In this document: positions 7,311-46,996 of the stretch, piece by piece | Position numbering within the stretch: position 1 is the stretch's first letter | How the letters are laid out: each line of letters starts with the position of its first letter | DNA from: Eutreptiella sp. 'Long Island Sound 2002' | Taxonomy: Eukaryota; Euglenozoa; Euglenophyceae; Eutreptiales; Eutreptiaceae | Assembly: GCA_964036045.1 (NCBI GenBank) | Contig: OZ038378.1 | Location: 182,306,944 to 182,370,943 of the forward strand | DNA: 64,000 nt | Direction of reading: 5' to 3' | Translations under genes and position numbers: made by a program | Notes under the pieces: model-generated | Database searches by the model: none | What the model was told of the DNA's origin: nothing | The model's input: the letters and a program-made list of their open reading frames with translations, nothing else

Positions 7311-7483
7311 TCAGGCGGGGCCGGGGCTGCACGGCCGATTGTTGGAGGCGTCGATGCAGAACGACGTGAGCACTGCCGAGGCCTTCAGGTCCAGCGACGC
7401 TGTGGCGCACAGCTGGTGGTCATCGGGCACCACCGCCGTGTACTCGGGCAGCCACTCTACACTTTGCCTTGACCAATGCACCC
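7311..7483 (-). CDS. PRMT7 terminal exon
   Basis: Acceptor CCAG|GGGTG; encodes HWSRQSVEWLPEYTAVV and ends in TGA. It matches the second-core THW-region strand (human HCKQAVYFF) and the final beta strands of PRMT7. It starts with two bases of a split codon. Confidence 0.55.
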
Positions 7484-13400: not shown

Positions 13401-16400
13401 CTGAAATGGGGTTGCATGACCACTTTGAATCGTTCCTCCTTTCTGGGGCCGCCGAGATGGCAGTCGTTAATTCGTCAATTTGATCCCTTCGACCTCTGTG
13501 GAGTCCCCAGGGTGGTAGGGGTTACGTAGGGACTTTGATTTCTTCCCCGTCTTTGGGGTACATGCCTCTATTCCCATGCAAGCCCCATGGATACCGGCAT
13601 ATCCAAAGAGCCTGCCTGATCGTACAGTGTGGAGACCGCAGCATCTACGCCCCGCTGCCCCTCTTGAGCAAGTCCGTTGACCTTCGAAGGGTCGACTGTC
13701 AGAAGCGACAGCGTGCTCTCCCCCGCCCTTCAGCCTTTCGCATCGAGTTGGACGTTGGGCCACCACTGCTCTGTGTTTCGTGGGCGTCTTAAACCCACTG
13801 CCTGTGCCCCTGCTGCGGTCCCACTGTACTTCATACCGCGGTCTACCACCTTGGCACCGACAGAGAATCGATGCATTGGCCCACAGAGAACCTTCCAATA
13901 CAAATCGCTCTGACGCTCATTTGCCACAAGGAACCCGCACAGCAAAAACCCAGCAAGGCGGATGCGGACAGGCACACAAAGAGCACAGCAGTCCCATTTT
14001 CCGGTGTGGTGGGCTCTGCAGTGCCGACGACATGGGGCGTGACCTGCAGCGGCGGCCTTGATGTGGTCAATGGGCTCACTGAAATTGAAATGCAACAGTG
14101 GCACCGGATTGGTGAGCAGAGTGTGTTCGTATTCCCAGACGCAGAGCGGCAGATGGGCGTCCTCACCTGAGGGACATGCGGCACATGTGGGGGGTGCCAA
14201 GGGGAATGCTTCCTGCGGGCTGCAGGCGCAGCAGGGTAAGGGTAATTAGCTTTAGGGTAATTGGACCCGCATTAATTTTCCTCAATTTTGGGTGAAGGAA
14301 GTAGGTCAAAAAAGGAACAATGGTGAGGCACTATACTCAAAACGGACAAAAGCGTTGCGATAACCACTGCCCACGGTTCACAAAGTGTACAATTTCCCCT
14401 GTTCCAGGATAATTACTTAAGTTGCGCGCTGCAGGCGCCGCAGAATTAGCGTTCACAAGGAGGGTTGAACGACGAAGGAGCAGAACGTTGCGTACGCCCC
14501 TGACTCATCGTTGTGGCCGCGGTCGTGGCAGTGGCAGTAGCAGTTGCCTGATGGGTGGGTTTAAGCAGTCACGCGTTGGTAACCGAAGGGCCACTGCACG
14601 CCACCCCATGCGCGTGGCACACGTTCCAGTGACCGCATGTGGAGCCGCGTGCCAAGCAGAGGACGATGCACAAAGCGACGCGCAAGTGAGCCAAAGATCG
14701 AGGGCAGAGATGTCGACAGCACATGTCAATGCTTTTACCTGCGCAACCTGATGGCCCTTGCTTCGTCTTGTGTGAACAGCAGCCGCGTTTTGGCCGCGTT
14801 TGGGTACCACTGCACTTTGCAGGAATGGGACGTGGGGTCGGGGCCTCGCCCACCACCAATTTATGTGTGCCCGTAAACCGGAAGGTCGAGCGCATGTTTG
14901 CGTCATGTGCGCTCTGTTGTGCTGTTTTCACGTAGAAAAGGTACCTGATTGCCTTCCACATAAGTTCGCTTGTGACTGAGACTGAACCACGTGGACTCAC
15001 TTGTTCGGCCTTTGTTAATGACAGCTACCTCTCTTCCCTCGCAGCAGACGCGCCCCACCCGCCATTCTCCCCCTGTCGTAGCACACCAGTGGGGTTACAA
15101 GTGGGGGATGGGTCCGAGGGGGTGTGGGGCATCCAACCACCCAGAACACCCCTTTCCAAAACAACGATGCACCCTCTGGGGGTCTATTAGGAGTGTGGGG
15201 ATGCATTGACCTGGACCCGAGGACAAGGGGAACCTGTAAACCCTGCGGCAGCGTGGCAAACGTTGTACTTGTGGTGCTCCACAAGCCCAAGTGGCGGGTG
15301 CAAGCAATGGCTGGGGGTTTCAGACCCACTCACCCATGGACTCAGGGCTAAATTATAAAGGGGGAAGCGGGAGGTCTGGGATTTTTCAGCCACCCACCCG
15401 AACTGAGAGCCCCCCCAAGACCCACAAAGCAAAAAAAAAAAAATCCGGATAAACGGAGCCTCTCCGCGGTATACCCCCGTGTCATCCCCTCTTTCCTCCG
15501 CCCAACGACAGAGCGCAGCTGAACAGGGCGTTCACGCCTGTTGGAGGTGCTTGTGCACAAATTTGCCACGAGGAGTGTATCGTTCCGTGTTGGTGTTGAA
15601 TGGGCTTGTGAGCGTTGCTTGGGGCACGGCCCCTGAGGTGAGAACCGAACGCAACAACACGCCTCACCATACCACGGCCACGCAGGAAGCCCCTCAGACA
15701 TGGACGCGTTCGGACATTAGATATTCGCACAAACCTGTGGCCAGCCTTTGGGCTTCTGCAAACGGGGTGTGATCAAAGCCATGGACGCTGGATATAAACC
15801 CGTGAGCCGAGGCCAAATGCTTAAATTGCACCAACGCGGCCATGAGGCGAGCCTACGTCGCACGGCATTGATGAGGGACAAGGGACAAAAATAGCAACCA
15901 AAACACGTGCGTTCAGCAAGTGCACGTGGCAAATGAGCCCCCCGGAACAGCATTCCACCCCTTTTCCTATGGGCCGTTCCCCTGAATGACTCACATGGTC
16001 TCCCTTGTACTGTTCCTTCCCTTTCTACTATGATCTCTTTAGGGTCTTGGTGTTGTATTTCAGACAACAATGCCCATAAGTCATGCGGGGCTGCAATTGG
16101 ACAGCCCCCTCCCTTCCCCGGGGTGGCTCCCGTGACGGGAGCCCCAGACAGGCCCACAGGGTGTGGGGGGTGGGGGATCCGGGATACCCCAACATATATC
16201 CCTCAAAATGATCGCCACGACGCGCTGATCATTTTGAGGTACATATCATGGGGAATATTTTTCCAAACTTTTTCGTTCGGGCCGCTTTGCAGCCCGATTT
16301 CTGAGCCAGGACTGGTTCTCAGACTGCCACTTGAGAAGGGCTCTCTCATGGCTGCCCCTTTCCCTGCCCCCCCCCCCCCCCGGGGTAAGGGGGCTCGAAC

Positions 16401-17695: not shown

Positions 17696-17775
<80 letters not shown>

Positions 17776-18330
17776 GAGAACCGCGAACAAAACAAAGCAA
17801 AACAAAGCAAGAAAGCGGTATGGAGAAAGCTTCTCAGGAACTGCAGAGCAGGCCTAGACGTTTTCGGTCTGTTGAAGAGCCTGCAGTTCGCAGGGCAACG
17901 AATTTGCAGGCAGTGGGGAATCCACCCTTCCCCAGACCTCAATAAATCCTTCGAGGATTTCGAGGTCCCCAATTGCCGCAGCCATTAAACACAATCAGTG
18001 CTGGGAGCCACCACCCAACCGCACACCCACAAGGGGGTAGGAATGCACAGGAACCAGGGGGCGGTCAGTGCATGAAGCAAATGAATGTCCTCGCACAATG
18101 CCGATATATATCCCTCCGGCTGGAAGACAGGGGAGATGTCAGTATCAGTACATCGGTCCCCCTCCCAGACTGCATGGCGGCAGAGCCAGCGGAACTACCT
18201 GGAGCATGCCCGATGCCGCCCGCAAGGCTAGTAGTGAGCCACCGCATATACCGCGCGCATAATGTTCTCCACGCGCCATGGAGGCGCACAGCTTTATGGA
18301 GCGCTCGCAGCACCGTCATGCGTGCATAAT

Positions 18331-18368: not shown

Positions 18369-21300
18369 TGTTACGACCAAAACGGAAGGGTAAAAGACAT
18401 GGAGTCGATGCCTTGGAGTACAGGAGACGCAGTCAGCAGCTGCGAGAACCCAAACAGAACAGGGCGAAGCTCAGCCCTGACACATACACTTACATGCACT
18501 CAGCTGGCGGCAAGAAACACCGACAAAACAACCTGCACTGAATCAGGGCGGGGGGTTCTCAGTCGGCGTACATAACCGCCCCCCCTCCTTCCCCTTGGGG
18601 GGGGTAGACGGCGTGTCATGCAAGGAGAAGATACTGCCCGGCAAAACACCCTCAGACAAGAATGGGGGGCGGAACGCAATGGGACACACGGCGACGACCT
18701 GATAGAAGCAATCGCCAACAACGGCGCGGACCTGACCCCACTCCTCTTTCCAAGGCTCGGACTGTGCGCCGGCCCAGACATCAAAATTGGTCAGCCCGTT
18801 GAGGCGGGCGGTCTCCAGCGGCAGCCGACGATTTCTCGGATTGAGCCCAACGACCCGCACTACAGACACAATGCGCCGCAGGCACACGACGGCTCCGCAG
18901 GGGCAAGCACTTCGCTCCCCCCCAAAAGGGGCGCCTCAAGGCGGACGGCAACAGCGCCCTGGGGCGCCCGCGTCGTCCACGCACACAGGCCTCAGGGCAC
19001 GGGGGCCACACCATCGGGCAATGCCTTCGCCACGAGCAGCCCAGCGAAGGACCCGTCACAAATGTCCAAAACGGTGCCTTCCGTCAGCGTCCCCGTTGCC
19101 GCCTGCGGAGCAACAGCGCAGCGCCGGCGCCATGCCAAGGCCCGAGGAGGCCCGCGGGAACACGCACGTCCCGCGCCCTTTGACAGAGGAGTGCGAGCGA
19201 GAGCGAAACCCGGGGCTGCACACCTCCAAGGCCTGACGCAGGAGCTGTCCTCTTGAGGCATCGTTGAGGGCAAGAATGCGGTGTGTTGGCAGCAACTGCC
19301 ATCCACAAGCACACGATGATGGGGCCGGAGGGGGCGGTGGACTCGTTCCCTGTGCCACGGGAAGGTGGGGTACAGGCGATGGAGGGGGTCTGGGGCTCGA
19401 CTACGGGGCGGAGTGCCGGGAGTTGAGACAGGGGGCGCGGTCTTAGCCCCCCCCCCCCCCCTGTCCAAGCAACGGTGAATGCCCAGGGCCCGGTGTTGCT
19501 TGGACAAGGGTGTTGCCTACGCGTTACGCTGTGCATGGAACATGCGCAAAGACATTGTGTACTATTCTGAAAACCAAGAGGCAAAACATGCCACGCTAGG
19601 CCATCATGCCCAAATCAGCTTCCTTGACACCAAATATGAACATCGTGCACCTCAAAACCAAGGCATCAGACAGCACACACAGCACAGAGTGGGACCAATT
19701 GAACAATGCACCGCCAAAATCCACGCTGCGAAAATTGACAGAGCCAACGCCTAGTGCTGCTTGGACATGGGCGTTGTTGCTTGGACGGGGGGGGGGGGTA
19801 AATGCTGCCCCACAAGTGCTCTGGGAAATGTGCGGGCCGACAGAGGGTCTCCCAACAGGTCCATGGGGCCCATGAATTGTTACGCTCAGATTTCGCAATT
19901 GATGTGCATTGCACGCCTCTGTCATGTTTCCCTTCGGTGCGTGAAACAGCCGTTGTGTACGTCCGCGCGGCAGCTGACAGTCCCGCGACGGCAATCGAAG
20001 GTTCAATGAGTGGAGGGTGCCGACGCTCAGTCAGTCGCCGTGGGCTGTGGGGCGGTTAGCAGCTGCTGCCCAACCGCGGCTTTCTTGCAGTGCAGGCATG
20101 AGATGTCTCGGAAGTATGGAATCATTCTGCTTCCGTCTGCAACATCTGCCTTCATCAGCCGCGTCCGGCCGGTCCGTGGCCCAACCTGAGCTCGCCCAAT
20201 GGGATGAGGCTGCCTCTTTGTACAATGGTACCATCGAAGTGAACACCACGGACTGACGGCCGCGGCCTTGTATTTACAAGAAAAATGTGTCCCGGAGGTT
20301 TTTGTTGCGGTGCTTGATAATGAACACGGAGACGATACACAGAGGCACACCGAAAGACGCAGCCAGATGTCGAAATCATTGTGGGCAGCAGACAACTTCA
20401 CTTCCTGTCCGTTTGTCACCTGAACAACAAACATACATGACCTTTGTACGGGACCCCCGGGGCTGGGGGGTCTGTAATAACCCCCCCCCTCCTCCAGAAT
20501 GTTTCCCCTGCGATACTAATTTTCGCCAAATGCATGGGGCAAGGGAGGGATTGGGGCTGAGAGCGTAAACCCCAGTCCGGGGGGCGCTGCATGTTGCAGA
20601 TGTCGTGGTGAGGTTGTCAGCCTCCGCTCGCAGACTACAAGTTTGATCAAGATGAACATTTTGAGGATGCATGTGTTACACTTGCTGCAGCGTCTTCTCC
20701 AGCTGCTGCACGCCACTGCTGCTGTTTCCAACGCGAAGAAGCATGCCAAACCTACTTCTTTCTTCAAGTGACTGGGGCAGGCCTGTGGCACTGTGGCTGC
20801 CAGTTGTTCATGCTCGGCGTGCTCTCGGGTGGCTCAAAGGGGGATGGGTTTTGGCAAAGCCCTCATTAAGGCAAGCGGATACATTTGCGGGGGGCGGAAA
20901 TTCTGGGGATCGGGGTTTTGGGTTGGTGATACTGCATAACGCCGTTACCCGAGAGGAGTCCCCGATCAGCAACGAAAAGGCGCAAAGAAGGGCAAAGTCC
21001 ACGTGACAGAACTCCCGTTCTGCGGCGCTTGCGGGGCCAGCAGTGTTCTCCAAAATCTCAGATTGCAGAGAGGCGGGTACGGGAATTTTTGGGGGTCTGG
21101 AGGGGGGGGGGGTCTGGATGGATGGATGACCGGCCGCCCCCCTTGTCCCGGGTGGTGAAGTGCGTATGGAGGAGCGCACATGTCTGAGCCTACGTCAACG
21201 GATCAGGGACGCACCTGTGAGACGTTCGCGAATGGCCAAATTGCCTGGTGCCAGTGGTCTTGCCAATGCCTGAGGAGGATACGGAGCCCTGTGAGTCAGT

Positions 21301-33002: not shown

Positions 33003-36000
33003 CTGAGTGTGTCACGCCACATCATACACTACATCCCAGGCTATTGCACGGGACAGTGCACTGTACCACACCACACCACACTACAAAACGGCACAGCACA
33101 GCACAGCACAGCACAGCACAGCACAGCACAGCACAGCAGGAGCTACGCCTGCACCAGCATGCGGAGCGAGAGGGGGTACAGCGGGAACTCCTGGAGTAAG
33201 GACGGTCGCCAGGGGGGTGACGACCAGGTCTTCCCGGCTCCCCCTCCCTCCGCCAGAATCCCCACACTTACACACGGCGCGCACACGACACACACAGCCC
33301 CGCCCGTTTACCTGTACCCGTGGGTAGACATCCCGGCCATTGCCTTCTGGTAACAGCGCCTTCGGCACAGCACAGCACAGCACAGCACAGCACAGCACAG
33401 CACAGCACAGCACAGCACAGCACAGCACAGCACAGCGCACCATCATTACCACGACAGTACATCTTCCCCATGGGGGGCACTCAGGCTCAGACGCTGACAC
33501 CAACACCCACCCTAACCTTTTGGGCCCTGTGGGGTGGGGGTGTGGGTGGGTGGAAGGGTCCTGGGGGGGGGGGGCGCCGGGCTGCAGTCCCGGGTACCCC
33601 AACAGACATACCTCAAAATGCCTCGTCGCACTGATCATTTTTGAAAACACATATTTGGGGGTTTTGAAAAAACAATTTCAGCCCTCTGGGGGGGTCTGGT
33701 CCCAGCAGCCAAGTGTTGGGGGCTGGATGGGGGAGGGCAGGGGTCTGAACAAATATTCATGTTTTGCATACGTATTTGGATTCCCCAAGAAATTCTGAGC
33801 ATTTTGAGTGTGCACACATGGGGTAACAACGCAGGCTTACCCCTCACCATATGCTGAAAATTTCCGGCGCCTTCGGCGCCAAATTTGAGCCAGATGTGGT
33901 CCCGACCTCCTCAACGTTTTGGACCTCTGGGGAAATTGGTAGTGGTAGTGGTAGTGAGCCCGGGCGTGTACGGGCACCGCATAACAGTTGCGACCAGCCC
34001 CCGGCCCCGACCTTCCGGGACGGCAGCTGTGACCCGATTCCCTAGCAGACATGTACACGGGCCGGGGCATGCCTTGAGGACTTCCGGGCGTTTGCCACAT
34101 GCGTGGTACAACATGTGCTCCCTGATGCCGGGTGAGAAAGGATGGTAGGGGGCTGGACAAAGAACTGGGATTTCCATGTGTTTGTCTCAGGTGGGGTACA
34201 ACTTGTGCTCCCAGGATTCGTACTGGGGGTTCCTGGATGCGTGGCTGGATGCATAACCACTCAACCACTGGGACCCGTGCTAGAAAATAGCGCGGGGTAA
34301 ACCGGGACTTCCTGGCGTTTGTCTCGGGGTGGGGTTTTACTTGTGATCCTGGGACCGGTCGAGGCCTTGTTGCTGGGGGGGGGGGGGGGCACCCATCCTT
34401 TCTCCCTGGCCTCCTCTTTTCCCCGGGGGGGGGGGGGGGCAAAAGCCTGCCGCCCCGTTTCCTGGCTCCCAACCGGGGGCCAGCCCACGGCCTGCACCCT
34501 CGCTTTGTGGTGGCTTAAATTTGGGCTGACAGAGCTCTGGGGAAATTGGGAGACGGGTGGGGGGTGGGGGTGTCAGGTCTGAGCCCGAGTGCCCCCCATG
34601 ATCTTCCCCAAACAGCATCAGAAGGCCATGGTCGTGCCACAACATGCTCAAACAACGACCTGCGCATGGCGGAGCTAGCCCTCTGGTTCAATGCACCATA
34701 TCACCAACACAAAGCACGGCACACGGCTGCTTCGCATGCCCGGCGTCTTAAGAAGTACACACGGTGGCAGCGCAGCCTCACAGCGCGGGTGCCCATCAAA
34801 AGTCGATTGAACGGTCCAATGGGACAGTTCTCTGAAGTCTGTGACACCTTTCCTCTGCCGTAGCGGCGACAGCCTCAAGACAGTATGCACCGCACAGTGC
34901 CTTGCTTTGACCTTGCAATGCATCCGCCATCTGCAGCAAATCTGACGCTGCAAATGGGGCGATGAATTGTTTCTTGGCCCTTTGGGCTCATAAACGCCGG
35001 CTGCTTGGGTGCCACTTAGACAATCGCATCCATGCAGAGATCCCTTGAGCCACGACCACAACCAATGCCACCACATGAGGCCACATGACACCTCGAACTC
35101 CAAGCGTTGAAGCTCCAATTGTACGCTTTGGCAGGCCACGGCATGGAAGAAGACATTCTTGGGAGCAAGGCCGTTGAAGAAGGAATACATTCCACCGGGT
35201 CGCAAAATGTCCGGCAGGATATCATGGAAGTCCTAGGCGCATGCGGCAGGTGCGGGGTTGCACATTAGGCTGGCTGCAGTGCTGACTCCATGCCATACCC
35301 CTGTGTGTACATATCCCTCACTTGGTGGGTTCCATACCGAAACATCCTTCTGCCGTTCTGGCACACCCCTGCTGCCCTGGAAAAAAAAGCAAACCGAACC
35401 AGCAGCAGTACGTTCACACGGTGTTGCTTGCTGAATGCTGATGCTGCTTCTGCAAAGGATGTGAAGACGTGGGGCTGGGGGGGGGGGGGGGCTCATTTGC
35501 TCTGCGGTGTGCTGATAAGACCGGTACGTTAACGTGTAGTACATAATGCGTCCAGTTTCATGTCCAGCGTCAGTGATTTTGTTTGAATCTGCTTGTAATT
35601 GGTCCGTCCTCGGGGTGTTTGGTGAGTCTTAGACGAGTTCAGGGCGTAATATTGTGAGCAATAGTGCGACATATGTCGTGCTGCTCACATTTGCCCACTT
35701 GCAAATGCACTCCTCTGCCAGCGCTGACAGGCTTCACAGCCATTCCCAAACTGGAAGGTTGCATCACCGGAGGTGTGCTGCTCCACGCATTTTGCCGCAG
35801 GTCAGGTGCTTCCAGACGGTGCGCTGAGGATCGCTGGACCCTGGATCCCAGGTGCAGCACAGTAAGCGACCAGGGTTGTTTGATGCTGATCCATGCCTGC
35901 AGAGCATGGTGGTGACCTGGTTTTCCTGTGCCCATTCCTGTAGCCATAATCCCACCCTGAACCCTGGGGGCCTGAGACTCCGGTTGTTGCAAAGGCTGAG

Positions 36001-39000
36001 GGTCCAGACACTCAGGACGGATGTAAAATAGAGCCCATTGCATTTGCCATCCGCTCCGTGGGTGTGTACACCTGCCCGCAATGTTGTTGGGATGCACAGC
36101 TGTACACTTCTTCATCCCGTGCCACGCACACGGACGGGGGAGGTTCCGGGCGTGGGCAAGGCACGCCAACTGTGTACGTCGCTCCCCCTCAACAGGCATC
36201 AACACAGCCTGTCTATGAACCCCCTGCACACAAATTGTGATGACACGGATGGCAGCAATACACTTCAACCCACTTTGCACCCAACAAACTGGGTACATTG
36301 TGCGAAAGCAGGAATAATGACTGGGGTTCGACGTGTTTGGCAAACTACAAAACTGTGCACTGCATGTGCACAGTTTTTTTTCGGGGGGGGGGGGGGGGGT
36401 AAGACACAGCTGGGAATGGGGGAGGGGGCTTGATCAGTCACCCACCGGAGCCACATAACGAGTTTGCTCGCCAAGGTGCCCACAGAGGAGTTTGCTTTGG
36501 GCACTCCCCTGTCTTTTTTGGGACATGCCCGGGATTTTGGAGGGTAAGATTCCCCAACAGCGAGGGGCCAGAGATCCATTTGAAGGATCTACAGGTCAGG
36601 GAGGGCGTTCGAGCCCACTTTCTGGACCCCCCCCCCTTCGCAAACGTGCCACGTGATCGAAGCCTAAAACAAGCCCCAGAGAGCGATCCCGCAGCGGGTG
36701 TGGGCACGTCACACACGTCCCTTGTTCTCGCAGCGCAGAGATAATGTCGAGGTATGTGTGGACGTGATACCATGTTCCGGATGTTCAGATTTGTATTCAT
36801 TGGCCGTGGCGTCTCCCACCCCTCGACCCATGCCGTGGCAACCTGCGACACTTGTTTTAGAGGCTGGGCGTTCCGGTTCCTCAACCCACGAAAAAGACAT
36901 CAAATAGATAAAAAGTGCTCAGGCTTCCGAGAGACGGCACGGTGTGCCCAGATTCGGGTTTTCCAGCCCTCAATGTGCCCCATGGACTCCCCTGGGGCAC
37001 ACATGCTCGTGGGACCTTCAAGCACTCTGGAGGGTTCCGGTGCGGCCGTCGCGATCCGGGGGTCGCGGCTTGGGACAGCCCCCCACACTCCGCGAGGGGA
37101 CCAATGTCCTCCCGCTCCCGTGCCCTGCTGCGGGACCGAACAAAGCGGTTCGTGTTCCCCATTCAACTCCGTCTTGGACACGGGGCCCAACGCCCGGTCC
37201 CCATCCACAAAATAGCGCATTCTGGCAGATGCACGAATGGACTGCGGCGGCGTGTGAACCTGACAAACCTGCTCCTGCCCATTGGCGGAGGTCTGGGGTC
37301 TGAAGGGGGGCGGGGCGGTGTCCGGGCCCGGCCCTACACTGTGTGTCTGCCGGCGGGTGCGTCACGAACTGAACACGGTCGTCCCGGGGGTGTGCACCCA
37401 CACATCGATGAGCCCTTGCCCTGGCCCAGACCTGCATGTCCGTGTAATGCTCCGCATACGTGTCATAGAAGATGGCGTCGAAGGGCCCCAATGTACGGAT
37501 GACGTCCTGCCATCGGCCGAACGCAATGCGCACCCCGGGCTTTCTGTCCCACCCTGAGGCAGATGCGGAGACACTCCTTGGGCCCTTTGGACCTCTGCCT
37601 CAGCCCCCGAGCAGCCATGTGCTTGCAGCAAACACCCCGACCCAACAGCCTTTGGTTCTTCAGCGAGAGTGCGGCGAGTACCCGCCGGAGTCGGTGGCGC
37701 GTCAGATGACCTTGCAATGCGACGTGGCACGCTGTTTCTACTCCCGGGCGTCTGAGGGAATGACGTGGAGGGGGGGGGAAGTGTCCTGCTTCTTCCGCCG
37801 GTTCATCTGTTGGAGGGCTACTGGCGGACCGTTGCGGGAGAGTCAGCAACCCTCAGGGGCTCGGACGGACGCAGAGGCACGCTCTCCGACTGCCGCATGC
37901 GGGACAAAGAGCTTTGGAGCCGCGTTTCTGGGCGGCGTTGGGTGCAGAGGACAGGGATAGGGCTACGGTCCACCATCCCCACGTAGTGCCTGCCCACGAT
38001 CTGCTCGACAGCGAAGAGGCAGAGGTTGCCAGGCGCTACTGACCACTCGCATTCACAAAGTTTGCATCTCTTCAGCGCTTTGCTACGACCGCCGTTGCTG
38101 CCCCTGCGGCTTCCGGGCAAACGCAACGTGCAGAGACACGCCATTCTCTATTTTGCCCCGGCCCTCCTTCCCTTTGAGTTACAACGCTGCACCCTTTGGG
38201 ACCATCAATGTCCCAAATCTCCATAACACTCGAGCCCAGGGCACACCGTCCTCGAGCATTTTGCGGTGGACATCAGGATGGGCCTCAATGATGGTATGCG
38301 TCTTACAGCCCACGCTTTGAATGAATGTGTCTATGATCCCCATACCAAAGCCTAGGAGAATGGAGGTGAAGATGGAGTTGTGGTGCAGATTGTGGTGATG
38401 GGGTCAGGGCTCAATAGTGGGATTGAAATTGAAATTTGGACAACTCGGATGTGGCGACGTTCTCAACTGTTTTGTTTTGTTGCAAACAAAAGTAAACCGG
38501 ACTGCACCGACATTGGGGGTTAAATGGGATGAAACTGAAGGAGGCAGCTCGCCGCAAAAGACCGTGGGGGCAGTGTGCATTTCGGCTCGGCGTACAGTTG
38601 GGCTTGGCGCATATGTAATCAGCCGGCCAAATGTATGGCCGTACATTCGGCCGGCTGGCCGGCTGGCCGAATGGCGATGCCTGACTTTCGGTGGACGTTA
38701 CTCGGCTGTTGGCGCGTGCAGCACAAGATTCTGTGGATGGCCCCGTAACACTTGGGGGTTCCAGAAAGGGGACTATTTTGGCCGGCCCTTTGTACCCCCG
38801 AATGGTGACGTGTGAGGGGTCACGTGTGGGTTGTTGTTTGAGACGACGTCAGCAACAAATCAGCACATGCAGATCACAAGAAGGAGGCAAAAGCTTATCA
38901 AGGGCCGAAAACGACCCTAGGCGCCTTTCGCAAAAAGTCGAAAAAAAATAGACACTCAGAACCCCCCCCCCCCCCCCCCCGGTGTCCAACGAACAATTTT

Positions 39001-42000
39001 GTCCAAAAAAATATGGTCCAAACAGGAGTGTCCGTTGGACACGCCGTTCGGCGCGCGTGACAAAATTGCAAAACGGCGGTAACCCATCCCCAGGCATAAG
39101 ACACCCAGCCCATCCAAATTACAAAGCGATGGAGGCCTCCAATGAGCACTTTTCAGTGTAGAAGCCCTTGTTGCAGCCCCGCTCCATGCGGAAAAGCTGA
39201 ACATGCCCCCGGGCTTGGGGCCCTCCTTGTTCTTGGCACAGGCAGAAATGGCAGCCTGATCTGGCTTAGGGACCTTTGGGACGGACACCGCTTGTATAGC
39301 ACCTCCTGGTCAGATGCAAGGGGGGCGACCTGTTCAAATTCTAGACCCCAACCGGGTGCGAAAACTTTTGGGGGTCTGGGGGGTAGGTGGGTCGGCCGGT
39401 CAGCCGCCGGGGTCCCTAGAGGGGGGTCAGTGGGTACCCCAAAATACAAACCTCAAAATGATCCCCATGAGGCGCTGATCAATTTCAACATACACAATGG
39501 GGTAAAAATTTTTTTCAGAAAAAATTTGCCCATTGGCTCAGGCTCCTATCAGCCAAGGTCAGACCTGGAGGTCAGGTCAAGGGTCAAAACATTTTCTGCG
39601 TTTTTCAAACATTTCTGAATTCTCCACAAAATTCTGAGTATTTTGAGTATAGTAGACACATAGGGTGAAAAAAAATATACCCCCTCAGGAAAGGCAAAAA
39701 AAAAAATTTCGGCGCCTTTGGCGCCGACCCTTTCCCCCAAATCTCAAATTGGAGAAGGATGGGTTCGAAAACTTTGGGGGGGTCTGGAGGGGGGGGGAGG
39801 GGGGGGGGGTCTGGAATTCGAACAGGCCGCTCCCCTTGGCCATGTGCAAGCAGAGAATCAGTCATGAGGTCCTGTAGTTGAGGGACACAATTCCCTCACA
39901 TCCTGCTTTACAACTTTACCCACAGTTACTCACTACAACCCCTCATTCCCCAAATCCTTTGGCCTGAAACCTCGATTCTGAAGCCTGGTACATAATTAAG
40001 TACGTAATTAATCATGTCGTCAAAAAATACGGTCCAAATGGAAGTGTTCGTTGGACACGGCATTCGTTGGACACGGGGGGGGGGGGGGGTAACACTCCTT
40101 TTTTGCCTCCATTATGTGAAAAAATAGGTTAGAGGAATCCGTTGATTGGCATACAGAATGTTGCCTGCCCACCTTCCATGCCAGGACGAGCTTTTTCTTT
40201 TGAGTGCTTGATGGCCCTCGCCTCCAACAATGAAGCAACACCCCTCCAGCAATGAACCATTCCCCGTCTACGTCCCATTTCTGGCACCCCAGAACCCCAT
40301 GCAACTCTTTCCACAGTTTTGGGTTGACAACAACGTTTGCACCAATAATTTTCCAAGAATTGTTGTCCGGAAAATCATTGGTGTAAAAATTTAAAAGGGC
40401 ATTCTGTGAGCACTGGCCAAAAGAGCTCCTGCCAATGGTGGGGAGGTTGGAAATGACTGACATCTAAAATTTCACCCACGGACGGACATCCCACTCTCAC
40501 CCACAACCTCCCCCGAAGAACGTCTGTTTTAAAGTACTGTGCACAAGCGGTGATCAGCACATAACGCAGAAGAAAAATTGGTTCTGTCGCAAAGTGGGAC
40601 AAGGGAAAGGTGACCTGTGGTGTGGACACCATGCCATCACCACAGCTGCGGCCTTTTTACCGTGACAGAACTCCCACTGTCCAACACAGTATGGCAGCTG
40701 GTGGTTGTTTGGCGAAAGCACTTCTTCCCCCCAAACATTTCCCCAAAAAATTTGAAGACCGCTGGGGGGAGGGGTGTCTCCCCCTCCCCCAGAAGTGCAA
40801 CTCTTCGAACCCCCAGACAAGGCAAGGACTGTCGTCGCGCAGCGGTGGGCACGTGTGCGGTCACCATGCTGCGGCCCCTGGACCATCATACCACACAATG
40901 AGTTCACGGATAGGGGACGACGGGATGGAAGGAACCACAGCACAGGGAGCATGGGGACCCCCTGCCGACGGGCCAGTGGCCCAGGGATGCGCTGGTGGGG
41001 CTCTGGGGGGGGGGGGGGGGGGCTCGTAGAAGAGACGTCAGCATGGGAACGTCGTGACACCACTCGGCACAGTGGTCGGAAAACGCCGGGGGATGAGGCA
41101 TGTGCCACGAAGCAGATGCCTCGCGGGACAAAACGGCTGTTTGGAGTGCCCCCCCCCCCCCCCCGGGGCCCTCCGGCCCCGGTGCACCCTGTCCCTGTAG
41201 CGCCAATTCCCTGAAGAGGGCAGCCCCTGGTCCCCTGGAGGGGGGGTGGGGCTGGTGGTCTCCGCTTGCCCCGCCCCCGCAACCCCATGCGTCCCTACCC
41301 CTTACCCCCCACTCCCTCAGTCCGTACCGCCGGGGGGGAGGGGGGTTCCGAGGCAAGGGAGGCCAATCCATGTAACCCCCGAGTCAGGGGGAGCGAGACC
41401 GGGCCAGAGAGGGTGTGAGGGCTGCGCATGATCGGGGGGGGGGGGCGCGAGACACACGCGCACACCGACGTTCAGCACGTCCCGATCCGCGTCCGTCCCG
41501 CACAGCAGCTCCGCGTGGGCCTTCATGATGGGGGTCTCCCACTCCATCATCACGCCATCGTCCGCATGATCCAGCAACTTGTCGCCTTCGTACCGAACGT
41601 TGCGCCCTGAGACACGGGGCTTGCGGCGCGTCCGGGCACGGCACAGCACTCTCCCCAACAGAAGGTCCATCCACATCAGGAGGCGCTGCCTCATGCGTTC
41701 AACGTCAGATGCATCACTGGGCACACGAGCACATGCCATAATGCCCTTGTGCAGATGTCACTGCTTCAGGGCAGTTCCATTTTCATTACTGGGGGTCGGG
41801 TGAGAGGGCCAGGGTATGTGGGGGGGTCCTGGTGGTTTGGGCCTGGGAGCGAAGGCCAAAGAGGAACACCAAGCAGCAAGGCCCGCAGGTACTCGGTCGT
41901 GTGTTCGGGAGGGGAGTCAGATGGGGACTAACACGCACACACACCTCCGACCTGCACCCCCACACACCTCAGACCTCTACCCCAGCTATTACTCCAGAAC

Positions 42001-45000
42001 ACTGGTTTTGGCCTGTTTTTGTGAGTATGATTTTCTTCTGTCCTGCAAAACAACACACCCAAAGTTTGCACTCGAGCACACTGCAATTGCACGACGGGCA
42101 ACTCACCCGCATTGAGTGGAGCATTGCTGGTGGTTGTGTAGGCGGACCTGCATGACCTCCCCAGCACTAGAGAAGGTGCCGACGTGCCTTGCAAATGGTA
42201 TGCTGAAACACACCCAAGTATTCCGATGAGTCCTCCAAATTACCCCCTTTAACTTGGCGCTCATCTGCAAGCTGCTTGCGTTCCAGGTACCTGCGGCGAG
42301 GTGGAAGTGGCAGTGGCAGTGGCACGGTCCGGAGGGGGACAAGCAGGTTGCCCTGACTGCAGTGCTCATGAATAACGAGTAAGAGCCTTGAAGCTTGACA
42401 GGCGCCGGCGACCACGATCTAGTCATCGCGGGCGAGAGCTGGCTCGGTGCGGGTCCACACCATCCATAGACCCAGTCCATCACAGTAGCCAGGGTCCAGT
42501 TCACCTGGGTGGCCGGGTAAAGCTCAGGGAAGGTCTTCTGGCGCAGTGCTATCACTTTATGAATGGCTGAGCCACTTCCTGGGCCTGCAGGAGCTTCACA
42601 GCAGGAAGAGTCTCAACTCACCTCACCTCAGGCCAAGTTCTTGCACTGCGTGCGCACTGCGTGCATACTGCGCACGCAGAGGCTGAGATACTCACCCAAG
42701 AATACCTGTCACCTGTCTAGTAGCACGGCGAAGCAGCAAAGCCCACATGAGAACAACGAAACTGCCTTCAACTTGCCCACTCTGAACATGTCCTTCTTCC
42801 ATAAAGTCCAATTTTGACAAACCCAAAATCCATGCTTCTTGACCCCACTTCCATGCTTTGTTCAGTGGCAAAGGAAAGCCCACATGCCCACTCTGAACAT
42901 GCCCTTCTTCCACAAAGTCCAACTTGTACAAACCCCGGATCCATGATTCTTGACCCCACTTCAATGCTTTGTTCAGCAGCAAGGGAAAGCCCACTTGGCC
43001 GCACAACAAAGCATGGATTGAATAATTGGCCCGGTCTCCTCAATAGCACCGGAAGGTTGAAAGCCCAAAATAACGCTCCCTCAAAGATGCCCGGCGCGCA
43101 CCCCGTGCGCTAACGCCGATGCGGGGGAGGAAATAGGGGGAAATGGTTGAAAATGGGCAAAAGTGGTTGACAATTCAAATATGCCACATCCTAAATGCTT
43201 AGGAAGCTAAAAAAAACCCTGGTACGGAACCAAAAACGTGTGAAAAGTGGCCAAAACTAGGGTTCGAGTATTTGCCGACATCCAAAACTTCGCACTGCGT
43301 GCGCACTGCGTGCATGGCATTCCCTCAGACCTCTGCGGCAGCATAGCTCAGAGCTCCCTTGCCACCCACCTCAGACCACCAGCCCCACACACCTCACAAT
43401 TGAACCCCCACACACCTGAGACCTTCACTCCCACACACCTCAGACCACCACCCCCACGCACATCAAGGAGCACCACTCACTCCACCAACTGCCTCCGCTT
43501 TCAGCGGGGGCCTGTGGGGGCATGGGAGGACGAGCACAACCACACGTCTTGGAAACCAGAGGACAGGATGGAGACTGGAAGAGGGCCATACCCAAGCAAC
43601 TGCTCCACGATCACTGCGTGGTTGACGATGATGTCGATGATGGGCTGATGCCCGGCGTCCATGGCATATTCACCTGCAGAAGCCGTGAGGGAATCACCAG
43701 AATACGGACCGAGCAGGCAGCAGGCAGCTACAAGCCGTCGCTTGCAGATAAAAGGCGGGGGGTCGCTACCAGATTCACACTGTAGCCCTCGCTCTGCCTC
43801 TATGACACCCACTTTGCCTCTAGCCGTCCCTTCGGTCAGTTGCTCAGCCATATGACGCGTTCAGCGCGGAAGACTCTGCTACGGTACATTCCGCGACTAC
43901 CCATGACTTCACCCATGAACAGGAGGGTGGGGGTGCCATACCTGCACATCGTCCATATCGATCAAGGGCATTCCATGGAGCGCCCGCGTTCAACAATAGC
44001 GAGACCGCCTCCTGATTCCCTGGGCAATGGGAGGACAAGGGTAAGAGGATGCAGTGGTCGTGTGTGTGTGTGTGTGTGTGTGCAGACGCGTGTGTGTGCC
44101 TGTGTATGTTGAGGAATCATCGTATTGGGGAGGGCAGCAGCCCTTTAAATTCCTGTACTCATGCAAAAGGTGGGGTCAGTGGTTAGTGGAATAGGGCTTG
44201 CTCCATCCCACGCGCCCCCCGTGCTTTGCGTCGCGGCAGAAGGCCCCGGTCTGCACAATCGCCTTGGGTCCTCCTGGCCCTGCCTCGTACTACGGAGGGC
44301 CAGCGACTGTTACGGTCCAACCCGCAAGTCGTGACACAGGTTGCAGCTGTTGTGCCATCATGCCCAGCCTGGGCCGCAGGCAACCGTATCCGCTGACCCT
44401 GGTGGAACCGCGACCAGGCATCATACACGACGCACACACACCCCTCGAAGCAAAGAGGAGAAAGAATTCACAGAAGGGGAAAACCGCCCACAGCTGCACC
44501 CTGATGCACACTGTGACAAAGACCAAACGCCCACACCAAAATGAAAAAGCGTTGCTGGTGGGGTGGAGGGGGGGGGGACCACGCCAAAGGTAAAGGACCG
44601 CAGTGGATCCAGAAAGATTTCCAGAAACTCTGCGAGGGGGCAAATGGGATCGTCTCCGCGCCTGCACGCGTTATATGTGGTAGGGGGAACTTGTAATCAC
44701 CCTCCCCCCGTGCAATACAATATCCGTCCTCTTGCCCTGACCCATCCAGGCCAGAGGAAGAAGAACGAGAACAAAATGGCGTGGGGGCAGAAGGAAAATA
44801 TGATCATCCCCTCCTGAACCCCCAGCACCACGTCCCCCACCTTCAGCTGACCCCGCTCAGGGGGAAGCTCCCACTGAATTGCCCACTGAGACTCGAGAGT
44901 CGGCCCGCTTTATGGCTGTGGTCAACCTCTTTGTGGAACCACAACCTCTATAAAGGCAACTGGCTGACATGTGTGCTACGCGCCGCCCAGCCGTGCCCGC

Positions 45001-45804: not shown

Positions 45805-45899
<95 letters not shown>

Positions 45900-46996
45900 C
45901 GTGCGTGTGTGTGTGTGTGCGTGGGTGCGTGCACCTGTGTGCGGGTGTGTGGCTGAACAGTCATGACAAACACCCCATGGCGCCCGTCCCAGAACCCTTC
46001 ACCAGGACAACACCTGAGTTTGCAGCGTGCATCAGCACAGAAGAGCCCTTGACTTCCTCCTGGACGGAAAGCACACCAGTGTTTGGCATCAACCCCCATC
46101 CCCCTTGCCCCTTGAATACCCCCCCGCAATGCACGATGGCGCCCCACACACCCCTGGGGCCCTGTGAGCTGCGGTAGATGTGATGACCTCTGGCAAGCCT
46201 CACCAGTCTCAAGACCTACAAGGCATAGCCCGTCCTGCGGTCTGGTGGCTAGGCCCCGACCTCTTGCATCATGTCTCGGGCTGTGCACCAGTGCCCAGGT
46301 GTCTCCAACACATGGGCACTCAATATGACATCGGAGCCTGTCGTGTCAACTGCAGTGGCCGCAACTGCGTGTGGGTGAGCGCAGATACCCCACGAGGGGG
46401 GGCCGCTTTGAGCAGGTCCCCTGTGCCACTGGTCAGGACCATGACTTGACATGGTCGTGTGTGGGTGTGAGTCAGCGGTGGGCAAGAGTCAACGTGTTCA
46501 GAGTGTAGAGGGCATCACTGCGCCAGGGTCGCCCAGGGTCAGCGGGTGGCCCCGATGGCCCAGTACTAGCACAAGTGCACTGTTCCCGGGGTGGGCTGGG
46601 TTGGGTGTGTCTTGACGTAGCCTGAAGCGCTTCCATTGTCATGAGATGGCGACCTGTCAGGGCGTCTCAGGCTGCCGTGCGTCGGACTCTGTGGAGGCGA
46701 CACCTTTTAGTAAAAGTGTGCAAGTGACGATGCCCCCCCCCGCAATGCAAAGGGGTTGACCCCCCTTGGGGTAGGTACCCCCCTCTTTGGGGTCTTTCAG
46801 GCCACAAGAACCGGATACACCGGCATGCCCCAGCCCACTCCTGATCCACAGGACTGCGCCTCACCCCAAGCGTGACCTGATAACATGCTTCTGCTCCAGC
46901 ATCCAACAACTCTTGTATCCGCACGGCATTGCCTTCTTTGGCCGCCTCAAGCAATTCAGCGTTAAGATCGTCGCAATGCCCCGGATCTTTCGCCAT
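32865..46996 (-). CDS. RMT2-type protein arginine methyltransferase (ankyrin + methyltransferase)
   Basis: RMT2 (type IV) enzymes put one methyl group on the delta nitrogen of arginine. They combine N-terminal ankyrin repeats with a GAMT-like SAM domain. Ten minus-strand exons: 46877-46996 (ATG), 44323-44368, 43942-44019, 43592-43673, 42214-42290, 41466-41606, 38247-38351, 37432-37553, 35092-35232 and 32865-33002; total 1,050 bp, 350 codons, no internal stop. Landmarks: ankyrin units (LLEAAKEGN, EAVSLLLNAGAPWNALD, AGEYAMDAGH), DGVMMEWETPIMKAHAELL, SAM motif VGFGMGIIDTF, HTIIEAHPDVHRKML, GRWQDVI, FDAIFYDTYAEHYTDM, RPGGMYSFFNGLAP and DGVRRKYW. The upstream frame is open to 47,266, so a longer N-terminus is possible. 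No stop codon follows directly: the last exon ends in a GT donor and may splice into PRMT7. All junctions are GT-AG except exon 2 to 3. Confidence 0.93.
33093..33137. repeat. (GCACA)n array 1
   Basis: About nine pentamers. A second, longer array of the same pentamer lies 230 bp away. Confidence 0.95.
33366..33435. repeat. (GCACA)n array 2
   Basis: About fourteen perfect pentamers in RMT2 intron 9. Confidence 0.95.
33590..33940. repeat. R3 element, copy c
   Basis: Contains both R3 halves in order: GGGTACCCCAACAGACATAC + CCTCAAAATG, then AAATTCTGAGCATTTTGAGT and CGGCGCCTTCGGCGCC. More diverged than the copy at 39.3 kb. It lies in RMT2 intron 9. Confidence 0.75.
34070..34350 (-). repeat. Module array with tRNA-like promoter boxes
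   Basis: Three modules of GGGAGCACAAGTTGTACCCC ... GAGACAAACGCCCGGAAGTCC (34,070-34,125; 34,163-34,215; 34,290-34,345). Between two of them the minus strand has a box-A-like AGTGGTTGAGTGG and a box-B-like AGTACGAATCC about 40 bp apart (34,270-34,205). This suggests a tRNA-derived SINE with a tandem tail. Only one cluster is in the window. Confidence 0.4.
35092..35232 (-). CDS. RMT2 exon 9
   Basis: GCCTAG|GACTTC to TTCGAG|GTGTCA, 47 codons. DFHDILPDILRPGGMYSFFN and GLAPKNVFFHAVACQSVQLE form the conserved RMT2 catalytic-domain core. Confidence 0.97.
35639..36343 (-). pseudogene. Intronic ORF with SNF2-helicase-like Walker A
   Basis: A 234-codon open frame in RMT2 intron 8. It contains QWALFYIRPECLD followed by GGIMATGMGTGKPGHHHALQ, the arrangement of a SNF2/DEAD-like helicase start (Q motif-like aromatic region, then GGILADEMGLGKT). 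The rest has no recognisable helicase motifs, the DE of DEMG is TG, and the frame is short, so I read it as a decayed mobile or viral-type helicase fragment. Chance similarity is possible. Confidence 0.35.
36351..36381 (+). other. Perfect hairpin followed by a T run
   Basis: Arms AACTGTGCAC and GTGCACAGTT around TGCAT, then eight T and a long G run. Resembles a Pol III or intrinsic-terminator shape, but no transcript ending here is supported. Confidence 0.4.
37432..37553 (-). CDS. RMT2 exon 8
   Basis: CCTCAG|GGTGGG to ATGCAG|GTCTGG. With the split Gly codon it reads GWDRKPGVRIAFGRWQDVI, then GPFDAIFYDTYAEHYTDMQ, a near-perfect match to RMT2 (GWDKKPNVRI, FDGIFFDTYGEYYEDM). Confidence 0.97.
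38247..38351 (-). CDS. RMT2 exon 7
   Basis: CTCCTAG|GCTTTG to GAGGACG|GTGTGC. FGMGIIDTFIQSVGCKTH and TIIEAHPDVHRKMLEDG: SAM-binding motif I and post-I of the RMT2 family. Confidence 0.97.
38622..38655. repeat. 34-bp imperfect palindrome
   Basis: GCCGGCCAAATGTATGGCC and its near reverse complement meet at the central GGCC, followed by GGCTGGCC repeats. Could extrude a hairpin. It is in RMT2 intron 6. Confidence 0.6.
38964..39070. repeat. Repeat R4, copy a, with 20-C run
   Basis: The C run is followed by GGTGTCCAACGAAC, AAAAAATATGGTCCAAAC and GTGTCCGTTGGACACG. The last block recurs at 40,014-40,095 beside a G run. Confidence 0.7.
39318..39837. mobile_element. R3 MITE-like element, complete copy d
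   Basis: Inverted ends AAGGGGGGCGACCTGTTCAA (39,318) and its counterpart ending at 39,837 match at 23 of 27 positions. Direct copies of GGGTGCGAAAACTTTTGGGG lie just inside both ends. The interior has the CCTCAAAATG hairpin block and the GGCGCC palindrome shared with four other loci. No coding frame is common to the copies, and no clear target duplication is seen. Confidence 0.75.
40014..40095. repeat. Repeat R4, copy b
   Basis: AAAAAATACGGTCCAAATGG and two copies of CGTTGGACACGG, ending in a 14-G run. Confidence 0.7.
41025..41126 (-). other. Exon-like block R16, copy b
   Basis: Reads EASASWHMPHPPAFSDHCAE on the minus strand. The block at 51,850-51,955 reads AYASWHMPHAAACSPFCADW; the codons differ mostly at third positions, which is a protein-level signature. 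It lies in RMT2 intron 6, is flanked by homopolymers, and has no clear donor. Probably a captured exon or part of an unknown element. Confidence 0.4.
41466..41606 (-). CDS. RMT2 exon 6
   Basis: TCTCAG|GGCGCA to GTCG|GTGTGC. RNVRYEGDKLLDHADDGVMM, then EWETPIMKAHAELLC and DVLNVG, the RMT2 linker and entry to the SAM domain. Confidence 0.97.
42214..42290 (-). CDS. RMT2 exon 5
   Basis: CCGCAG|GTACCT to TTGG|GTGTGT, 77 bp. YLERKQLADERQVKGG...EDSSEYLG, the charged linker that precedes the methyltransferase domain in RMT2. Both phases are exact. Confidence 0.88.
42644..42680. repeat. CACTGCGTGCG 11-bp repeat
   Basis: Three imperfect copies. The same sequence recurs at 43,292-43,316 at the end of R5 copy b. 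Confidence 0.7.
42780..43010. repeat. 111-bp tandem duplication, open on minus strand
   Basis: Two full units and a partial third. On the minus strand each reads as one continuous frame with FPLLLNKALKWGQESW and LDFVEEGHVQSG, differing mainly by conservative changes. It sits in the intron between RMT2 exons 4 and 5. Function unknown. Confidence 0.65.
43125..43310. repeat. Dispersed repeat R5, copy b
   Basis: See 3,316. It ends in the CACTGCGTGCG repeat. Confidence 0.65.
43592..43673 (-). CDS. RMT2 exon 4
   Basis: TCTGCAG|GTGAAT to CTTGG|GTATGG. EYAMDAGHQPIIDIIVNHAV, the last ankyrin helix pair of RMT2 (family: AGDYAIxxGHxxVxxLLL). Confidence 0.95.
43942..44019 (-). CDS. RMT2 exon 3
   Basis: GCCCAG|GGAATC to GTGCAG|GTATGG. 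NQEAVSLLLNAGAPWNALDR, ankyrin repeat. Confidence 0.95.
44060..44083. repeat. (TG)n microsatellite
   Basis: About eleven TG dinucleotides, 40 bp upstream of exon 3 in transcript sense. Confidence 0.9.
44323..44368 (-). CDS. RMT2 exon 2
   Basis: GGCCCAG|GCTGGG start, phase 0. HDGTTAATCVTTCG plus N from exon 3 gives the ankyrin consensus DGTTxLHxAAxxGN at exact length. The 46-bp length keeps the ten-exon frame, but the donor would be G|GG or, shifted one base, GG|GT paired with AGG|: not canonical GT-AG. Confidence 0.8.
45797..45960. repeat. Long (TG)n microsatellite
   Basis: More than 50 TG dinucleotides with a few interruptions, in RMT2 intron 1. Confidence 0.97.
46877..46996 (-). CDS. RMT2 exon 1
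   Basis: ATG at 46,996 in AAAATGG context; 40 codons to TATCAG|GTCACG. Encodes AELLEAAKEGNAVRIQELLD, the first ankyrin helices. An in-frame upstream ATG near 47,090 is possible. Confidence 0.9.

What the first reader, a model, noticed from the sequence alone, without database searches (positions are those of the whole stretch)
7311..46996. Possible fusion of two arginine methyltransferases: ankyrin-RMT2 joined to tandem-core PRMT7
Seen: RMT2 exon 10 ends in a phase-0 GT donor (32,864) with no stop. The first PRMT7 exon starts at a phase-0 acceptor (31,075), has no in-frame ATG before its conserved N-terminal motif, and has an in-frame TAG on the acceptor. The joined frame is open: 350 codons plus 489 codons to exon 11. 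Known: RMT2 makes delta-monomethylarginine and PRMT7 makes omega-monomethylarginine; I know of no fusion of the two. Inference: one bifunctional enzyme. Alternatives are an unseen PRMT7 start exon or trans-splicing at 31,075.
Basis: partly seen in the sequence, partly recalled or inferred. Interest (0 to 1): 0.92.

Follow-up and report, generated by a model that had tools for sequence, protein, structure and literature searches.

The report
Two arginine methyltransferases fused in euglenids
In this euglenid alga, two enzymes that put different single methyl marks on the amino acid arginine, usually separate proteins, appear to be built as one protein, which suggests that the two marks may be made together on shared targets.

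Summary
On the minus strand, 10 exons encode a complete ankyrin-RMT2 (type IV) arginine methyltransferase; 17 more encode a complete tandem-core PRMT7 (type III) ending at 7311. Best model: 28 exons, 1,063 codons, no stop. Two other sequences show the same join: a Euglena gracilis transcript ORF (P0012) runs from the RMT2 C-terminus through an acidic linker into PRMT7, and a 1,206-aa ORF of unnamed origin (P0001) is ankyrin + RMT2 + tandem PRMT7. A 54-base cassette (31,904-31,851) probably adds to the linker: 54 residues against 53 in Euglena. Signature residues of both enzymes are intact. Against: Eutreptiella RMT2 is deposited free-standing, P0012 is a fragment, P0001 has no organism, and there is no RNA from the window's species. 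Best reading: one bifunctional monomethylarginine enzyme, two modules on a flexible tether; its substrates (perhaps ribosomal protein uL11) are inference.

The parts
46877..46996 (-). Exon R1: start ATG, ankyrin part of RMT2
   Evidence: Ank_2 Pfam match residues 15-100
46014..46059 (-). Exon R2 (ankyrin)
   Evidence: aligned to P0079 and P0001
43942..44019 (-). Exon R3 (ankyrin)
43592..43673 (-). Exon R4 (end of ankyrin)
42214..42290 (-). Exon R5
41466..41606 (-). Exon R6: RMT2 core, VMMEWE
38247..38351 (-). Exon R7: RMT2 NVGFGMG motif (begins at the R6/R7 join) and EAHPDV
37432..37553 (-). Exon R8: RMT2 GRWQDV, FYDTYAEH
35092..35232 (-). Exon R9: RMT2 YSFFNG
   Evidence: colinear with the start of P0012
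32865..33002 (-). Exon R10: end of RMT2 core (RRKYWHDRKEYFLPTAIYY) and acidic tail PEEESDNDE; phase-0 donor GT at 32864
31851..31904 (-). Probable linker exon L1 (54 nt, GPTSAAAKQSPASAPEEE, phase 0/0); inferred, not shown by RNA
   Evidence: acceptor 12.6 and donor 8.3 bits; no other phase-0 open cassette of 30-200 nt outside known exons reaches both scores on either strand, though one comes close; brings linker to 54 aa against 53 in P0012
30822..31003 (-). Exon P1: PRMT7 N-terminal extension and QLRARLDPQNGGLEW motif (acceptor 31,003 preferred over 31,075)
29696..29854 (-). Exon P2: PRMT7 motif I VLDIGTGSG
28161..28314 (-). Exon P3: PRMT7 post-I YACEGF
26411..26602 (-). Exon P4: PRMT7 double-E loop SEILDSHLIGEG
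25419..25507 (-). Exon P5
24177..24347 (-). Exon P6
21215..21269 (-). Exon P7: THW-like WQDHWHQAIW
20351..20419 (-). Exon P8
19224..19349 (-). Exon P9: CxC (SCACGW) region and start of second core
19012..19102 (-). Exon P10: second core VLDICDGS
18699..18859 (-). Exon P11
17240..17341 (-). Exon P12: YLNFWYLRTA
15735..15852 (-). Exon P13
14044..14166 (-). Exon P15 (next after P13; a draft exon P14 was dropped): LCVWEYEH
   Evidence: alignment to P0012 and P0199
13262..13309 (-). Exon P16
10612..10686 (-). Exon P17 (donor weak, -1.9 bits; boundary uncertain)
7311..7483 (-). Exon P18: last exon, TGA stop ending at 7311

Best explanation
One nuclear gene of a euglenid (46,996 to 7,311, minus strand) encodes a single protein of about 1,045-1,063 aa: ankyrin repeats, a complete RMT2-type (type IV) arginine methyltransferase, an acidic linker of 36-54 residues, and a complete tandem-core PRMT7 (type III) with an intact-looking N-core and a degenerate second core. 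Shown: the open, spliceable frame; the same domain order in a Euglena gracilis transcript ORF (a fragment) and in a full-length ORF of another, unnamed organism; intact signature residues in both enzymes. Inferred: that the protein is made in this species, that both halves are active, and that tethering brings delta-N- and omega-N-monomethylation to the same or neighbouring substrates. The RMT2 substrate in yeast is ribosomal protein Rpl12 (uL11). A second RMT2 fusion found here joins RMT2 to a PF05891 proline methyltransferase; yeast Tae1, also a proline methyltransferase, modifies the same Rpl12. Fusion partners of RMT2 may thus share uL11 or the translation machinery as target.
For: P0012 (EG_transcript_4355) reads RMT2 exons 9-10, linker and PRMT7 in one ORF; P0001 has all domains in 1,206 aa. 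Identical/aligned residues with the window, RMT2: P0001 196/339, P0012 73/90; PRMT7: P0001 255/690, P0012 289/572. RMT2 tree: window + Eutreptiella 100, with P0001 91 SH-aLRT. PRMT7 tree: window + P0012 + P0199 95/96, with P0001 and P0200 96/94. RMT2 near-invariant residues kept 63/63. PRMT7: best solved-structure match mouse PRMT7 4C4A, E 7.4e-61; double-E, DHW and CxC kept. Model of P0012: residues 89-127, inside the linker, below pLDDT 50; PRMT7 N-core blocks 181-280 at 91-98; best PDB match 4C4A. Donors: 13 of 27 begin GTG and 7 of 27 GTGTG, the published E. gracilis consensus being GTGTG with C-rich pyrimidine tracts (PMC11170887, abstract and passages; donors).
Against: Eutreptiella P0079 (79% identical) is deposited as a 378-aa free-standing RMT2. 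P0012 lacks about the first 257 of 350 RMT2 residues and the PRMT7 C-terminus, so it is a fragment. P0001 has no named organism and may be a gene prediction. P0200, named complete by its source, is a free-standing PRMT7 in the same clade. The intron between the halves could hold other exons. All GT-AG boundaries were chosen as such by me, with homology. No RNA or activity data were available for the window's species, and its genome search did not complete.
Confidence: 0.87

Rival explanations
1. Two separate neighbouring genes: RMT2 has a short unseen terminal exon and PRMT7 a short unseen first exon in the 1.86 kb between them.
For: 14 possible terminal exons and 7 possible initial exons exist by simple scan; Eutreptiella RMT2 is deposited free-standing; P0200, named complete by its source, is a free-standing PRMT7 of the same PRMT7 clade.
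Against: The E. gracilis transcript ORF and P0001 are fused in the same order with acidic linkers.
Confidence: 0.05
2. The fused mRNA exists, but a second mRNA trans-spliced to the spliced leader at or near 31,003 also makes PRMT7 alone.
For: Outron and intron acceptors share the C-rich tract and CAG in E. gracilis (PMC11170887, passages), and 31,003 is a strong acceptor.
Against: There is no in-frame ATG between 31,003 and the conserved PRMT7 start motif, so such an mRNA would start inside the conserved region.
Confidence: 0.06
3. The gene fusion is real but only one half is catalytically active; the other serves as scaffold or substrate adaptor.
For: Annelid PRMT6 fusions are reported as likely catalytically dead enzymes (PMC12153100, passages). 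In P0001 the third glycine of PRMT7 motif I is a serine (VLDIGTGTSLL).
Against: In the window all 63 near-invariant RMT2 residues and the PRMT7 motif I, double-E, DHW and CxC signatures are intact.
Confidence: 0.15
4. The relatives are artefacts: P0012 a chimeric transcript assembly and P0001 a mis-merged gene prediction.
For: P0012 is a fragment with an assembly-style name; P0001 has no name or organism.
Against: Window, P0012 and P0001 give the same order, frame and kind of linker; the same in-frame chimera arising separately is very unlikely.
Confidence: 0.02

Closest known systems
RMT2 / type IV protein arginine N-methyltransferase 2 (yeast Rmt2; Eutreptiella gymnastica P0079)
   Same: Ankyrin repeats plus RMT2 core; 63/63 near-invariant residues; 79% identity to P0079.
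   Different: The 120 RMT2 relatives listed are 292-492 aa (the tool passes at most 1.75 times the query); here the chain runs on into a second methyltransferase.
PRMT7 / type III arginine methyltransferase (mouse PRMT7, 4C4A)
   Same: Tandem core, motif I, double-E loop, DHW, CxC region; fold match shown on P0012.
   Different: N-terminus is fused to RMT2 instead of starting with its own methionine. T. brucei PRMT7 structures are shorter chains of 343 and 390 aa that match only the first core.
P0001, 1,206-aa ankyrin-RMT2-PRMT7 ORF of unnamed origin
   Same: Same full architecture and order.
   Different: 54% identity over 97% of the RMT2 region, longer linker (66 aa) and insertions in PRMT7.
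RMT2 fused to a PF05891 proline methyltransferase (P0002-P0010)
   Same: RMT2 joined to another protein methyltransferase.
   Different: Different partner enzyme; 693-888 aa.

Membership tests
RMT2 (type IV PRMT) | Ankyrin repeats before the core | tested here: met
   Ank_2 residues 15-100, E 1.2e-9
RMT2 (type IV PRMT) | Near-invariant core residues of RMT2 (63 columns at >= 95% among 120 relatives, columns filled in at least 110) | tested here: met
   63/63 in the window protein; 61/63 in P0001; 14/14 covered in P0012
RMT2 (type IV PRMT) | Makes delta-N-monomethylarginine | not testable with these tools
   needs enzyme assay with mass spectrometry
PRMT7 (type III PRMT) | Two tandem PRMT modules in one chain | tested here: met
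   Aligned to mouse PRMT7 4C4A over query residues 32-631 of 695; fold match of the relative P0012
PRMT7 (type III PRMT) | Motif I, double-E loop and DHW (THW-like) in the N-core; zinc-finger CxC between cores | tested here: met
   VLDIGTGSG, SEILDSHLIGEG, WQDHWHQAIW, SSCACGW; that CxC belongs to the zinc finger is recalled
PRMT7 (type III PRMT) | Makes only omega-N-monomethylarginine | not testable with these tools
   needs enzyme assay
RMT2-PRMT7 fusion protein | Both enzymes in one open reading frame in at least one RNA-derived sequence | tested here: met
   P0012, E. gracilis EG_transcript_4355, with the RMT2 C-terminal part only
RMT2-PRMT7 fusion protein | RNA joining 32,865 to 31,003 (directly or via 31,904-31,851) in the window's species | not testable with these tools
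   no reads held; search of the own genome not answered

The most novel reading that the evidence does not exclude
A euglenid-type bifunctional monomethylarginine synthase: one polypeptide installs delta-N-monomethylarginine (RMT2 half) and omega-N-monomethylarginine (PRMT7 half) on the same substrate, most likely uL11/Rpl12 or neighbouring ribosomal proteins, with the ankyrin repeats as common docking site. RMT2 would then be a recurrent fusion hub for enzymes that modify uL11, as the RMT2-PF05891 fusion also suggests.
Probability: 0.3. Interest if true: 0.82.

Novelty: new variant of a known kind. Interest (0 to 1): 0.68.

Why it matters
My searches of the held paper library showed no report of an RMT2-PRMT7 fusion (judged from listings and a few passages). 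A 2026 review says that type IV enzymes occur only in fungi and probably plants (PMC12925635, passages). A 2021 review says that PRMT7 was duplicated in metazoans, while adding that the origin of the duplication needs more study (PMC8399567, passages). A euglenid gene with RMT2 and tandem PRMT7 sits awkwardly with both statements. Gene fusion is a classical hint that two enzymes share a substrate or pathway. Yeast RMT2 has one well-known target, Rpl12 (PMC3020972, passages), so the fusion makes a concrete test possible: does PRMT7 act on uL11 or the ribosome in euglenids?

Tried and rejected
Rejected: the 31,075 acceptor (weak; 31,003 scores better in the same frame). Rejected: draft exon P14 and the longer P15, absent from relatives. 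Rejected: an ATG at 31,070 as PRMT7 start, because it is in another frame; I altered no base. Considered: polycistronic pre-mRNA as origin of P0012; rejected because the ORF is open through the junction and P0001 shows the same join. The splice-score argument for L1 is not decisive alone: the cut-offs were L1's own scores, a cassette of nearly equal strength (35,376-35,338; 12.5/9.1 bits) lies in an RMT2 intron without support from relatives, and looser cut-offs give 7 cassettes on the minus strand against 2 on the plus strand (8/6 bits) or 39 against 23 (5/5 bits).

Led nowhere: tRNA and Rfam scans (none at the default thresholds). P0001 against viral contigs (no relative) and genome contigs (two weak matches in bacterial genomes, L001 and L002, not used). 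Paper search for EGtranscript4355 (0 papers). Pfam on four further coding-like stretches matched 1 of 4.

Limits of counts: one search lists all 78 hits among 3,164 candidates; one search lists 120 of 622; one search lists 120 of 435, and only the 7,996 candidates sharing most words were scored (P0001 is not among those listed). The RMT2 tree (quick method) has 132 rows: the window, P0001-P0011 and P0079-P0198, the long ones cut to their first 385 or 400 residues; P0012 was left out (95 RMT2 residues). The PRMT7 tree has 15 rows: the window, P0001, P0012, P0199 and the hits of 640-900 aa; shorter, mostly bacterial TPR-bearing hits were dropped by that length rule. The P0001 grouping in the RMT2 tree (91) is below the 95 mark, and the order of P0001, P0200 and the euglenids in the PRMT7 tree is unresolved. 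The tail lengths (n = 119) include rows not checked for completeness.
Full report
What was claimed.

Check of the observation. I read the sequence and assembled the exons by script. Exons R1-R10 give 350 codons of RMT2 from the ATG at 46,996. Exon R10 ends PEEESDNDE at a phase-0 GT. The PRMT7 exons give an open frame in the same phase down to a TGA ending at 7311. The total is 1,045 codons with the acceptor at 31,003, or 1,063 with the probable linker exon. There is no in-frame ATG before the conserved PRMT7 start motif, and there is a TAG on the 31,075 acceptor, as stated. All introns of the model are GT-AG, because I chose the boundaries so, guided by homology. Of 27 donors, 13 begin GTG and 7 GTGTG; GTGTG and C-rich pyrimidine tracts are the published pattern of Euglena gracilis (PMC11170887, abstract and passages). 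The donor of exon P17 is poor (-1.9 bits).

The junction. Scored with a matrix trained on the other introns of the draft model, the 31,075 acceptor gets 2.6 bits and 31,003 gets 8.2. After retraining on the final model without the disputed intron (24 donors, 25 acceptors) they get 4.4 and 9.6. Splicing at 31,003 also yields DE|AT, like DEAT in P0001, EEAT in P0012 and DEAA in P0079, a weak resemblance in acidic sequence. Between the halves lies a 54-base open phase-0 cassette, 31,904-31,851, GPTSAAAKQSPASAPEEE, with acceptor 12.6 and donor 8.3 bits. No other cassette of 30-200 bases outside known exons reaches both scores on the minus strand, and none does on the plus strand. But a near equal (35,376-35,338; 12.5/9.1) exists in an RMT2 intron, and looser cut-offs give 7 against 2 or 39 against 23. 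With the cassette, the stretch from the end of the RMT2 core to VQLRARL is 54 residues against 53 in E. gracilis and 66 in P0001; without it, 36. I take it as a probable linker exon, not as shown.

What the window alone cannot show. In the gap I count 14 possible RMT2 terminal exons with an acceptor of at least 2.6 bits and 7 possible PRMT7 first exons with a donor of at least 4 bits. The RMT2 relatives often have C-terminal tails (median 25 residues, n = 119). So the missing stop and missing start are not proof by themselves.

Evidence from relatives. I searched the protein database with the joined protein but scored only the RMT2 half, so that only long proteins containing that half could appear (78 hits among 3,164 candidates). 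Of the 78, 12 (P0001-P0012) match the RMT2 methyltransferase part; the other 66 are ankyrin-repeat proteins by their listed domains. Two of the 12 are the predicted fusion. P0012, Euglena gracilis EG_transcript_4355, 689 aa, begins at the last codons of RMT2 exon 8, runs through exons 9 and 10 and an acidic linker into PRMT7, and breaks off at WEYE. The name style EG_transcript is that of the published E. gracilis transcriptome (PMC6366073, passages). P0001, 1,206 aa from a 29,941-base contig without a name, has ankyrin, RMT2, acidic linker and tandem PRMT7 from methionine to end. Nine others (P0002-P0010) join RMT2 to a different enzyme, PF05891 (precomputed for 9 of 9; I scanned 2 of 9). One (P0011, a chytrid) has another tail.

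Kinship. The best free-standing RMT2 hit is that of the euglenid Eutreptiella gymnastica (P0079, 79% identity over 97%; lineage). I conclude that the window is euglenid DNA. It does not look like E. gracilis itself (81% in the shared RMT2 part, 73/90; 51% in PRMT7, 289/572). In the RMT2 tree of 132 rows, window and Eutreptiella join at 100 and P0001 joins them at 91 SH-aLRT. In the PRMT7 tree of 15 rows, window, P0012 and P0199 (a second E. gracilis PRMT7-like transcript) join at 95/96, and P0001 and P0200 join them at 96/94. Both halves of P0001 therefore go with both halves of the euglenid protein, which fits one fusion event. But P0200, a free-standing PRMT7 that its source calls complete and whose organism is not given, lies in the same PRMT7 clade, and its order relative to P0001 is unresolved.

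Are both enzymes intact? Of 63 RMT2 columns that are at least 95% conserved in 120 relatives, the window keeps 63, P0001 61 and P0012 14 of the 14 it covers. PRMT7 aligns to mouse PRMT7 4C4A with E 7.4e-61 over query residues 32-631. Motif I VLDIGTGSG, the double-E loop SEILDSHLIGEG, the DHW motif and the CxC between the cores are present. In animal PRMT7 the C-module is held to be inactive (PMC8399567, passages); the second core here is diverged too. An AlphaFold model of P0012 (20-row alignment, mean pLDDT 75.6, pTM 0.70) gives the PRMT7 fold (best PDB match 4C4A, E 6.1e-41) and a linker without structure (residues 89-127 below 50). The RMT2 fragment at its N-terminus is poorly modelled (blocks of 37-69), as expected for a part of a domain. 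The window's own protein was not folded.

How it most likely works. Two catalytic modules on one chain, joined by a flexible acidic tether, with ankyrin repeats at the N-terminus. The RMT2 half would put a methyl on the delta nitrogen and the PRMT7 half on an omega nitrogen of arginine (types summarised in PMC12925635, passages). Yeast Rmt2 methylates Rpl12 (uL11) on Arg67, and yeast Tae1 dimethylates the N-terminal proline of Rpl12 and Rps25 (both from the table of PMC3020972, passages). That Tae1 belongs to PF05891 is recalled; the Pfam description of PF05891 is AdoMet-dependent proline di-methyltransferase. RMT2 is thus fused in other organisms to an enzyme of a kind that shares its yeast substrate. 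By the same logic the PRMT7 partner may act on uL11 or its neighbours. Yeast rmt2 and ntm1 deletions are both cited as deficient in 60S subunits (PMC11248248, passages). This shared-substrate step is inference.

Evidence against. Eutreptiella RMT2 (P0079) is deposited as a 378-aa protein without a fragment mark in the listed name. Its last residues (SGDEADLMAAPSGQV) could be a truncated linker or a true end. P0012 is a fragment. P0001 has no organism, and in it the third glycine of PRMT7 motif I is a serine. The window's own genome could not be searched: ten requests did not complete.

Novelty. Paper searches: PRMT7 with RMT2, ankyrin and fusion (0 papers); Euglena with arginine methyltransferase (4, none on topic by listing); RMT2 with ankyrin and evolution (3, by listing); PRMT7 with type III, type IV and delta-monomethylarginine (30 papers with at least three of the four terms, 15 listed); PRMT7 with domain fusion (1, on annelid PRMT6, passages); PRMT7 with Euglenozoa and evolution (261 papers with at least three of four terms, 12 listed). 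None showed such a fusion, as far as listings and passages tell. Both enzyme families are known; the join is a new architecture. I rate it a new variant of a known kind, interest 0.68.

Noticed in passing
proteins P0002-P0010: A second RMT2 fusion: RMT2 (with ankyrin matches in most) + PF05891 AdoMet-dependent proline methyltransferase, 693-888 aa; precomputed PF05891 in 9 of 9, confirmed by Pfam in the 2 of 9 scanned. In yeast Rmt2 and the proline methyltransferase Tae1 both modify Rpl12 (PMC3020972, passages).
   Followed up: partly
protein P0199: A second E. gracilis PRMT7-like transcript (EG_transcript_5763, 625 aa) that starts after the N-terminal motif; whether it too is fused cannot be told.
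   Followed up: partly
window 6119-6139, 11076-11096, 23406-23426 (-): Dispersed repeat with identical 21-base core GGAAGAACGGGTGACTGTCCA, 3 copies against 0 expected, two of them inside introns of this gene.
   Followed up: partly
window 16185-16210, 33595-33620, 39435-39460 (-): Another dispersed repeat (CATTTTGAGG..TTGGGGTA), 3 copies against 0 expected, all three in introns of this gene; by eye it lies beside an imperfect palindrome around TGATCAGCG.
   Followed up: no
window 57776-57895 (-): Exon-like stretch with a calcineurin-like phosphoesterase match (PF00149, E 5.6e-5), same strand as the fusion gene.
   Followed up: no
window 49420-49554 (-), 55915-56049 (-), 61156-61275 (+), 61607-61696 (+): Coding-like stretches by codon use; the first three were sent to Pfam without a match, the last was not sent. 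The two plus-strand ones resemble each other (VEESVE.ALHE.RFYAVIKHAL), perhaps a transposon-derived repeat.
   Followed up: partly
one search hit list: RMT2 homologues are listed from green algae, diatoms, Thecamonas and Monosiga (for example P0081, P0160, P0150, P0145), wider than the fungi-and-probably-plants range given in the review PMC12925635 (passages).
   Followed up: no
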